A stretch of DNA of 35,941 nt from an uncultured Methanosarcinales archaeon (GTDB lineage: Archaea; Halobacteriota; Methanosarcinia; Methanotrichales; Methanotrichaceae): assembly GCA_903871465.1 (NCBI GenBank), contig CAIQHB010000012.1, positions 1 through 35,941 on the forward strand, read 5' to 3'. Made by a program: the position numbers and the translations under genes. The first letter of the stretch is position 1; each line of letters begins with the position of its first letter. This document shows positions 10,336-12,433 of the stretch, piece after piece. The notes under the pieces were generated by a model. It had not been told where the DNA came from, made no database searches, and saw only the letters and a list, made by a program, of their open reading frames with translations.

Positions 10336-10803
10336 TTATTTTTTTAATATTTTTAAGTCACTCTTGCCTGGCACAATTAGAACCGGGACCTTGGAATGAC
10401 GTACCACCTTTTCCGCCACGCTACCCAGCATTATTTTTTCGAGCCCTGTCCGGCCGATGCTTCCCATCACCAGTAGATCCGTTCCTGATTCTCTGGATCG
10501 CCTGAGGATCTCTTCGCCGGGGTTTCCTTCGGCAACGATCTTCTCAAAGGGCACACCTGCATCGGAGGCCATCTCCCCAATTTCTGATGTGGCTTCTTCC
10601 CCTTCCTTGAACATAAGCCCCATTAACTTCTCACTAAATCCTGGCAAGGTCGTATAGCCTGGAAGTTGAGCCAGCCTGTAAATGTCCACTACATAGATCG
10701 CTGTAACTCCGCCTGCAGCGAGCCTGGCCAGGCCGATGGCCAATTTTGCAGTGCGCATGCTCGTCTCGGATCCATCCGTCGCGATCATTATCTTCTTGAA
10801 CAC
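10336..10803 (-). CDS. Universal stress protein, UspA family
   Basis: The 155-aa single Usp domain starts MFKKIMIATDGSETS. It carries the ATP-binding pattern G-2x-G-9x-G(S/T) as MGSIGRTGLEKIMLGSVAEK, followed by VPVLIVP. Proteins of this type bind ATP and modulate stress survival or partner transporters. The start is GTG with GAGGT upstream. It is convergent with the aminotransferase; both ends lie in a T/A-rich 28-nt gap. It lies downstream of, and on the same strand as, the cation efflux gene, 51 nt away, so they could share a transcript. Confidence 0.88.
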   Translation of the reverse strand: MFKKIMIATDGSETSMRTAKLAIGLARLAAGGVTAIYVVDIYRLAQLPGYTTLPGFSEKLMGLMFKEGEEATSEIGEMASDAGVPFEKIVAEGNPGEEILRRSRESGTDLLVMGSIGRTGLEKIMLGSVAEKVVRHSKVPVLIVPGKSDLKILKK

Positions 10804-10854: not shown

Positions 10855-11874
10855 TTAAGACTCTTTTGTTACAGTGAAGGCATCCGTTCCATTCGCCATT
10901 AACGCATTCCTATTGTTCTCGGAGAGCAAACAGCCGCAGGATCCTTCACTAGCTATGCTGCAATTGCAGGGCTCGATATGGATAGTGACCATAGTTCCCG
11001 GATAATGCTGTTTGATCGAGCAGGTTATCATATCTGCAATGCGGTGCGACTCGTCAACGGACATTGTTGCGTCCACTCTGATATGAAACTCCACGAAGCG
11101 ACTTGCTCCCGCTTTTCGCGTGCGCAGCCTATGAATTCCTCGGATGGTGGGAGCAAAGGCGATTATGTGTTTGCGTACTTCTTCCACTTCGTTGCTGGGA
11201 AGACCCACATCGATCAGATCGCGTGCAGACTCAATGGTCAAGTGATACGCAGCTTTGATGATTAACACCGCAACTACTATTGCGGCTACTGGATCTACCC
11301 ATCGCAGGTTTACACCTGGAACTATTAATCCTCCGACAACGATAATAATGAGGCCGGCCATCACACCCAATGAAGTGTAAACATCTGTTCGCAGATGCCA
11401 GGCATCTGCTTTAAGTGCTACGGAATCCGTTTCCTGGCCTACCTTGAAGAGCCTCTTTGAGACGAAGAGGTTCGCCATCACAGAAAGAAGCATGACTGCC
11501 GCGCCCCACCCTGCTTCATCCAATGGCTCGGGGTTTCTTAACTTTTTAATTGCTTCGTAGAGGATCCAGCATGCAGCAATGAAGATGAGCAATGCCTCTA
11601 CTGTTCCCGAGAGGTTCTCAACTTTGCCATGCCCGAAGGGGTGATCCTCATCGGCGGGCTTTGCTGCCGTCCTGACGGCAAAGAGAGCGATAACGGCTGC
11701 AAGCAAATCCACACCAGAGTGGATAGCCTCGGAGATGACAGAGACCGATCCGATCGTTAATCCGACGATGAGCTTGAGAAGAACCAAGCTTGAGTTAGAA
11801 ATCACAGAAAGAAGAGCTACATTCGTCTTTCGTTTGTTCCGAACTTCGGGACTATCTTCCATAATAGTTTCCAT
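10855..11874 (-). CDS. Cation diffusion facilitator (CDF) metal efflux protein
   Basis: This is a CDF transporter of about 339 aa. Its first membrane span leads to the signature SVSVISEAIHSGVDLLAAV, followed by DEDHPFGHGKVENLSG (metal-site Asp/His) and six predicted spans. ARDLIDVGLPSNEVEEV opens the cytoplasmic metallochaperone-like domain, and HIEPCNCS lies near the C-terminus. It probably exports Zn, Fe, Co or Mn by proton antiport. An upstream ATG at 11934 is in frame, but a TATA box and a palindromic operator lie between it and residue 21. The true start is therefore most likely ATG 11874 or 11862. Four Cys in the last 60 residues (CNC, CGC) suggest extra metal binding. Confidence 0.85.
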   Translation of the reverse strand: METIMEDSPEVRNKRKTNVALLSVISNSSLVLLKLIVGLTIGSVSVISEAIHSGVDLLAAVIALFAVRTAAKPADEDHPFGHGKVENLSGTVEALLIFIAACWILYEAIKKLRNPEPLDEAGWGAAVMLLSVMANLFVSKRLFKVGQETDSVALKADAWHLRTDVYTSLGVMAGLIIIVVGGLIVPGVNLRWVDPVAAIVVAVLIIKAAYHLTIESARDLIDVGLPSNEVEEVRKHIIAFAPTIRGIHRLRTRKAGASRFVEFHIRVDATMSVDESHRIADMITCSIKQHYPGTMVTIHIEPCNCSIASEGSCGCLLSENNRNALMANGTDAFTVTKES

Positions 11875-11880
11875 AAATTT

Positions 11881-11897
11881 TGACTGACTGTCAGTCA
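11881..11897. promoter_or_regulatory. Perfect 17-bp palindrome, candidate operator
   Basis: TGACTGAC-T-GTCAGTCA is a perfect inverted repeat with a one-base centre. It overlaps the predicted transcript start of the CDF gene, immediately after the TATA box, which is the ideal position for a repressor. The tandem TGAC half-sites resemble TetR/AcrR-type operators (from general knowledge). The regulator is not encoded in this window. Confidence 0.6.
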
Positions 11898-11905
11898 TCA
11901 TATTG

Positions 11906-11914
11906 GTATATAAA
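11906..11914 (-). promoter_or_regulatory. TATA box of the CDF gene
   Basis: TTTTATATA on the minus strand, about 25 nt before the expected transcript start near 11885. Its position inside the longest open frame argues for the shorter protein start. Confidence 0.55.
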
Positions 11915-11980: not shown

Positions 11981-12394
11981 TCAGTCTCGTCTCTTGATCA
12001 GGCAGACTGCCGCAAATATGGCTAACACAGCCAGAGCTGCTGGGAATCCTGGTTGCTGTTTGAGCTTCTGGTTCAGCTGGTTCTTCAATTCCTCTTTTGC
12101 CCTTTGTTCCAGCTCTGCCGGACTGATATTTAGATTCTGGTTGAGCTTTTGGCCAAGCTCTTTCTTTGCCTTTTCGGTGAGATTTTCAGCGGTTTTATTG
12201 AAGTCCTGAGCGATATGCTCCTGTGTCAGATTTCCTTCCGCTATGTGTTGAGCCGCCTTCTGCTGAAGCTGTTCTCCAGCAGCCGTCACCTGGCTCTGGA
12301 GAGATCCGGCAAAAGACTCAACCGGGTTCTGGGCAGATGCCACAAAAACCAGGGCTAGGAGAGCTGCAATTAAAACCACATACGATATCTTCAT
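11981..12394 (-). CDS. Secreted PGF-CTERM protein
   Basis: The 137-aa protein has a signal peptide (MKISYVVLIAALLALVFVAS, cleaved near SAQ). A Gln/Lys/Glu-rich helical middle follows (about 30-112) with sequons NLT, NKT and NLT. The tail is a PGF-CTERM signal: QQPGF (residues 113-117), a hydrophobic span, then CLIKRRD. Such tails are recognised by archaeosortase A and replaced by a lipid anchor, so this should be a small surface-anchored, probably glycosylated protein. The start at 12394 is set by AGGTGA eight bases upstream; an earlier ATG at 12433 is in frame but would hide the signal peptide. Function is unknown; the helical body could be coiled coil. Confidence 0.75.
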   Translation of the reverse strand: MKISYVVLIAALLALVFVASAQNPVESFAGSLQSQVTAAGEQLQQKAAQHIAEGNLTQEHIAQDFNKTAENLTEKAKKELGQKLNQNLNISPAELEQRAKEELKNQLNQKLKQQPGFPAALAVLAIFAAVCLIKRRD

Positions 12395-12433
12395 GTTACT
12401 TATCACCTGAGTCCGATTTTTCGAGTCTTCCAA

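What the first reader, a model, noticed from the sequence alone, without database searches (positions are those of the whole stretch)
11862..11914. Perfect 17-bp palindrome over the start site of a CDF metal exporter
TGACTGAC-T-GTCAGTCA lies directly after a TATA box and before the likely start codon, exactly where a metal-responsive repressor would block transcription. It also shows that the longest open frame is over-extended.
Basis: partly seen in the sequence, partly recalled or inferred. Interest (0 to 1): 0.55.

Follow-up and report, generated by a model that had tools for sequence, protein, structure and literature searches.

The report
Conserved TetR operator at metal-exporter promoter
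A perfect DNA palindrome sits on the promoter of a metal-exporter gene in a methane-producing archaeon; it is a real, conserved docking site for a TetR-type repressor, but this genome lacks the repressor that reads it in related species, so a surviving cousin of that repressor may have taken the site over, or the site is a leftover.

Summary
The palindrome (11881-11897, TGACTGAC-T-GTCAGTCA) is real and unique in its 3.13-Mb Methanothrix-type genome. Palindromy alone proves little; conservation does. The same 16 arm bases with a variable centre stand at the orthologous CDF promoter in 11 other species of the genus, at a contig edge beside it in a 12th, and with one mismatch in a 13th, while flanking DNA has diverged. 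In relatives a TetR-family gene ("TetR-B") lies in the same operon (operator-CDF-USP-tetR); three species encode a related "TetR-C" elsewhere or upstream. So "operator of a repressor" is well supported, the regulator family is now named, and the start codon is most likely 11862. Metal response is untested. The twist: this genome has no TetR-B or TetR-C. Its only TetR is a paralogue ("TetR-A") of an ABC-exporter operon. A motif built from TetR-A operators of other species scores the window palindrome (22.4) at least as high as TetR-A's two own operators here (20.3, 22.0). I favour capture of the orphaned operator by TetR-A (about 0.55, given that it is an operator) over a relic. An ordinary kind of switch in an interesting evolutionary state.

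The parts
11881..11897 (.). 17-bp palindromic operator TGACTGAC-N-GTCAGTCA
   Evidence: Present and unique in the genome; exact in 13 of 60 genomes, all in the genus; arms conserved with variable centre
11907..11914 (-). TATA box (TTTATATA) of the CDF promoter
   Evidence: Sequence; ATATA at the same offset in 11 of 14 palindrome-anchored promoters
10855..11862 (-). CDF metal exporter gene with the most likely start codon at 11862-11860 (longest frame to 11934 is over-extended)
   Evidence: Pfam Cation_efflux and ZT_dimer, TIGR01297, N-terminal similarity and upstream stops in relatives
11872..11874 (-). Alternative ATG start codon, also downstream of the palindrome
   Evidence: Sequence; not conserved in relatives
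10336..10803 (-). Universal stress protein gene, second gene of the presumed operon
   Evidence: Pfam Usp; follows CDF directly also in relatives with the operator and tetR-B

Best explanation
The palindrome is the operator of a TetR-family repressor. A dimer bound there covers the transcription start just downstream of the TATA box, blocks the CDF-USP operon, and lets go when it binds an inducer, probably the exported metal. Shown: operator conservation, place next to the TATA box, and in relatives pairing with an operon-encoded TetR of one recognition-helix type. Inferred: repression, inducer, transcript start. In this genome the cognate TetR-B/C is missing; the most likely present reader is the one TetR left, TetR-A (G000:C9:2051-2701), which sits behind two TGACT-N7-AGTCA sites of its own. 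If so, an ABC exporter and the CDF exporter now share one repressor. I put the operator part alone at about 0.9; the figure below is for the whole statement.
For: Conservation: exact pattern in 13 of 60 genomes (13 of 26 in the genus, own included; 0 of 34 outside), one further genome with one mismatch; mean majority frequency 0.996 in the arms, 0.50 at the centre, 0.49 in the flanks over 14 promoters. Operon linkage operator-CDF-USP-tetR contiguous in 7 genomes, 5 with intact tetR. B/C-type tetR, intact or broken, in 12 of 14 genus genomes with the site and in 0 of 12 without it (Fisher about 1e-5, not corrected for ancestry). Own genome: a single TetR; 2 of its 4 TGACT-N7-AGTCA sites lie in that tetR's promoter and a third is the window palindrome. 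TetR-A matrix from 10 other genomes: window site 22.4, TetR-A's own sites here 20.3 and 22.0, next best place in the window 10.9. In its CDF subclade, G026 without TetR match and G004 with only a 27% match have a half-decayed site and no recognisable site.
Against: TetR-A has another recognition helix (SQGA against AQGT) and none of its operators seen is a symmetric TGACTGA/TGACTGA site. The matrix was trained on sites pre-selected for the shared core. G019 keeps a perfect site with a wrecked TetR-B and no TetR-A found; G022 has TetR-A but no site at its CDF gene. No binding, expression or metal data.
Confidence: 0.5

Rival explanations
1. Relic operator: the cognate TetR-B/C was lost recently in this lineage, nothing binds the palindrome now, and the CDF operon runs without this control.
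For: TetR-B is broken in G019 and G020 while the site stays perfect, and G019 has no TetR-A, so sites do outlive their regulator. Helix and half-site preference of TetR-A differ.
Against: No remnant of tetR-B is left here: 28 bases separate the aminotransferase and USP genes, so the loss is not obviously fresh; none of the other 7 CDF rows of the subclade has a TetR-B/C in its genome, which suggests an older loss, yet all 16 arm bases are intact; the site scores as a TetR-A site.
Confidence: 0.25
2. The cognate TetR-B or TetR-C exists in this organism but lies in an assembly gap, and the operator works exactly as in the relatives.
For: The genome is in 81 contigs; TetR-C acts from elsewhere in G006 and G009.
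Against: Completeness 99.61%; two independent searches found only TetR-A; the place next to USP, where tetR-B sits in relatives, is assembled and holds another gene; the gene that accompanies tetR-C has only a 34% match here.
Confidence: 0.06
3. A regulator of another family (for example a metal-sensing one) reads the palindrome, and the TetR gene in the operon of relatives is coincidental.
For: The regulator has not been identified by experiment; other regulator families were not searched in the own genome.
Against: tetR-B/C genes co-occur with the site, and tetR genes of two other genera carry similar sites in front of them.
Confidence: 0.07
4. Chance palindrome without function.
For: The window holds a longer perfect palindrome inside a gene.
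Against: Arms conserved over 14 promoters with variable centre and diverged flanks.
Confidence: 0.01

Closest known systems
SczA-czcD of streptococci (TetR-family zinc regulator of a CDF exporter; passages of PMC8265624)
   Same: A TetR-family regulator assigned to a CDF metal exporter gene.
   Different: SczA is described as a zinc-dependent activator encoded divergently from czcD; here the site covers the presumed transcription start, which points to repression, and tetR-B is the last gene of the operon. No sequence comparison with SczA was made.
FadR of Sulfolobus acidocaldarius (archaeal TetR repressor; passages of PMC6449355)
   Same: Archaeal TetR with semi-palindromic sites; [quoted passage not shown]
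   Different: It controls fatty-acid genes and is taken to respond to acyl-CoA; here the cargo is a metal exporter.
TetR-A with ABC exporter operon of the same genus
   Same: Paralogous TetR with the same TGACT-N7-AGTCA core in front of its own gene.
   Different: Helix SQGA(F/Y), half-site mostly TGACTTA, and an ABC ATPase with a DrrA-like C-terminus as neighbour.

Membership tests
TetR-family operator with self-linked regulator | Inverted repeat in the promoter, conserved across species | tested here: met
TetR-family operator with self-linked regulator | TetR gene controlled by, or next to, the site in relatives | tested here: met
   7 genomes with contiguous operator-CDF-USP-tetR, 5 of them intact; PF00440 match of TetR-B
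TetR-family operator with self-linked regulator | Cognate TetR present in the same genome as the window | tested here: not met
   Only TetR-A found
TetR-family operator with self-linked regulator | Direct protein-DNA binding | not testable with these tools
   Needs gel shift or footprinting
SczA-type metal-sensing TetR | Response to a metal ion | not testable with these tools
   Needs titration or expression data
SczA-type metal-sensing TetR | Conserved metal-ligand residues | tested here: inconclusive
   H110, D/E112, H118, H167 in 12 of 12 B/C-type proteins that cover the region; D/E112 together with H167 in 0 of 10 TetR-A that cover both. Model mean pLDDT 71.8, no coordinates
CDF family, Zn or Fe/Zn groups | Cation_efflux domain and HxxxD in TM5 (DxxxD in the Mn group; PMC1868760 passages) | tested here: met
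   for the domain; HLRTD read in the translation; TM assignment by eye

The most novel reading that the evidence does not exclude
Regulatory capture: after losing the dedicated TetR of the CDF operon, this lineage kept the operator because the paralogous ABC-exporter TetR now reads it, joining a metal and a drug-type efflux response under one repressor; the genus offers a natural series of intact, broken, missing and replaced regulators over one operator.
Probability: 0.45. Interest if true: 0.6.

Novelty: new member of a known kind. Interest (0 to 1): 0.42.

Why it matters
It names the likely regulator family and operator of a metal-export operon in Methanothrix, for which my searches listed no report. 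It also gives a testable case of an operator that outlives its repressor: does a paralogue adopt the site, or does the site decay?

Tried and rejected
Other sites in the genome: L003 (C16) and L004 (C75), each with 3 mismatches, were looked at as sequence and, for L004, as ORFs; I saw no link to metal or TetR genes and set them aside. The fourth TGACT-N7-AGTCA site (C80:104045) scores 11.3 with the TetR-A matrix and was set aside as likely chance: about 3 such sites are expected in 3.13 Mb (my arithmetic).

Other loci encoding CDF relatives, mostly bacterial (L049-L115, of the 80 loci; L063 and L078 among them are Methanothrix), show no close TetR beside them: weak hits of E 3.5e-5 to 7.5e-5 in 8 loci. 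The TetR-CDF linkage was seen only within the archaeal family.

RadA was tried as a species tree: the place of the own genome stayed unresolved. The structure model of TetR-B was moderate and its PDB search gave generic TetR matches at 9.6-13.5 A rmsd among the 50 listed, so it was not used. The paper search for the half-site letters was swamped by unrelated papers; the search for lost-regulator cases gave nothing usable.

Dropped or unseen rows: G008 has no CDF match; G005 is 56% complete and has the site but no TetR found; in G015 the site lies at a contig edge beside the PGF-like gene; the second CDF copy of G002 (L044) starts at a contig edge, so its promoter is unseen. The script missed some loci because of its search word; they were checked.

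Full report
What is there. On the minus strand the CDF promoter reads TTTATATA (11914-11907), nine bases, TGACTGACAGTCAGTCA (11897-11881), then ATG at 11874 and ATG at 11862. The protein is a CDF exporter with HxxxD in TM2 and TM5, read by eye in the translation. By the rule of Montanini 2007 (PMC1868760, passages seen) the TM5 motif excludes the Mn group and leaves Zn or Fe/Zn. The gene is followed by a universal stress protein (USP) gene and a convergent aminotransferase gene. The longest frame (start 11934) runs through TATA box and palindrome. In most relatives with the site the same frame meets a stop at the palindrome, and similarity begins at the ATG at 11862, so that is the likely start. 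Archaeal transcription starts about 26 bases after the centre of the TATA box (recalled), which would place the start inside the palindrome; it was not mapped.

Is it more than chance? The genome holds no second copy with fewer than 3 mismatches. A perfect palindrome as such is unremarkable: a 19-bp one lies inside the CDF gene. The proof is conservation. In 60 genomes (own included) the exact pattern occurs in 13, once each, all in the genus: 13 of 26 there and 0 of 34 outside. In 12 of these 13, own included, it stands at the CDF promoter; in G015 it is at a contig edge, beside the gene that precedes CDF in several other species. G009 has one mismatch at its CDF gene. Anchored without gaps, 14 promoters give 0.996 mean majority frequency in the arms, 0.50 at the centre (all four bases occur) and 0.49 in the flanks; an ATATA stands at the same offset in 11 of 14, and G009, G018 and G019 lack it there. 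Four-fold degenerate sites of the CDF gene are 32-49% identical between the own genome and eight relatives, so the arms are not simply too young to have changed. The genus is Methanothrix by the titles of matching contigs.

Who reads it? In seven genomes the order operator-CDF-USP-tetR is contiguous: G001, G010, G017, G021 and G024 with intact tetR-B, G019 with a wrecked one, G020 with a frameshifted one. In G007 and G018 contig breaks separate the pieces. In G006, G009 and G015 a related tetR-C lies elsewhere or upstream, next to a sugar-isomerase-like gene (that name is my reading), with TGACTGATCGTCAGTCG in front of it in G006. In two other genera tetR genes carry TGACTGACCGCCAGTCA (G030, CDF directly behind) and TGACTGCGCATCAGTCA (G032). 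B/C-type genes, intact or broken, occur in 12 of the 14 genus genomes with the site and in 0 of the 12 without it; of these 12, 11 had a CDF gene to inspect (G008 had none). Fisher's test gives about 1e-5, uncorrected for shared ancestry. The two exceptions are G005 (56% complete) and the own genome.

Two TetR kinds. Ten TetR-A and twelve B/C-type proteins fall on two sides of one branch (support 100/99). TetR-A has the recognition helix SQGA(F/Y) in 11 of 11 rows; B/C types have AQGT(L/F) in 13 of 14 rows and AHGTF in one, fragments included. TetR-A sits with an ABC ATPase gene and its half-sites are mostly TGACTTA; B/C sites are TGACTGAC-type. Helix and site thus change together, but as one split. 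B/C types also share H110, D/E112, H118 and H167 (12 of 12 that cover the region); D/E112 together with H167 occurs in 0 of 10 TetR-A that cover both. This is a lead to a metal site, no more: the model was moderate and gave no coordinates.

The orphan. The own genome (99.61% complete, 81 contigs) has one TetR by Pfam model and by TetR-B search: TetR-A on contig C9. Its promoter carries two adjacent TGACT-N7-AGTCA sites after a TATA-like stretch. Four such sites exist in the genome: these two, the window palindrome, and one on C80. A half-site matrix from 15 TetR-A sites of 10 other genomes scores TetR-A's own two sites 20.3 and 22.0, the window palindrome 22.4, and the next best place in the window 10.9. 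So TetR-A could read the window site. Against this, no TetR-A operator seen is a symmetric TGACTGA/TGACTGA site, and the matrix was trained on sites pre-selected for the core.

Relic or capture? In the CDF tree the own genome groups (96/88) with G026, G004, G011, the second copy of G002, G013, G025 and G016; none of these genomes has a TetR-B/C. G026, with no TetR match, has a half-decayed site (TGACTGACAACGAGTCA); G004, with only a 27% match, has nothing recognisable there. That the own genome, which still has TetR-A, alone keeps a perfect site in this subclade fits capture. But G019 keeps a perfect site with a wrecked TetR-B and no TetR-A found, and G022 has TetR-A without the site. Given that it is an operator, I put capture at about 0.55; the relic is the main rival, and a gene in a gap or another regulator family make up the rest.

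Known relatives. SczA of streptococci is a TetR-family zinc regulator of the CDF gene czcD, described as an activator (passages of PMC8265624). [quoted passage not shown] The layout here fits the second; the cargo resembles the first. Searches listed no paper on this operon in Methanothrix; of those I saw only listings and abstract starts, apart from passages of PMC6449355 and PMC1868760. The kind of switch is ordinary. What is unusual is the series of intact, broken, lost and possibly replaced regulators over one conserved operator.

Noticed in passing
window 11391-11409: A perfect 19-bp palindrome (GCAGATGCCAGGCATCTGC) inside the CDF coding region, longer than the one given.
   Followed up: no
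window 11981-12397 (-): Small secreted protein with a weak PGF-CTERM match below the cut-off, found next to the CDF gene in many relatives.
   Followed up: partly
L047 5469-5700 and L040 5490-6043: tetR-B is wrecked in one relative and frameshifted in another while the operator stays perfect: repeated loss of the regulator in the genus.
   Followed up: partly
L049-L058, L095: CDF genes 50-64% identical to the window's in bacteria of several phyla, possibly transferred between domains; no close TetR beside them.
   Followed up: partly
L159 1501-1517 (G000:C80:104045): A fourth TGACT-N7-AGTCA site near the start of an ORF that looks phosphatase-like to me; weak TetR-A score.
   Followed up: partly
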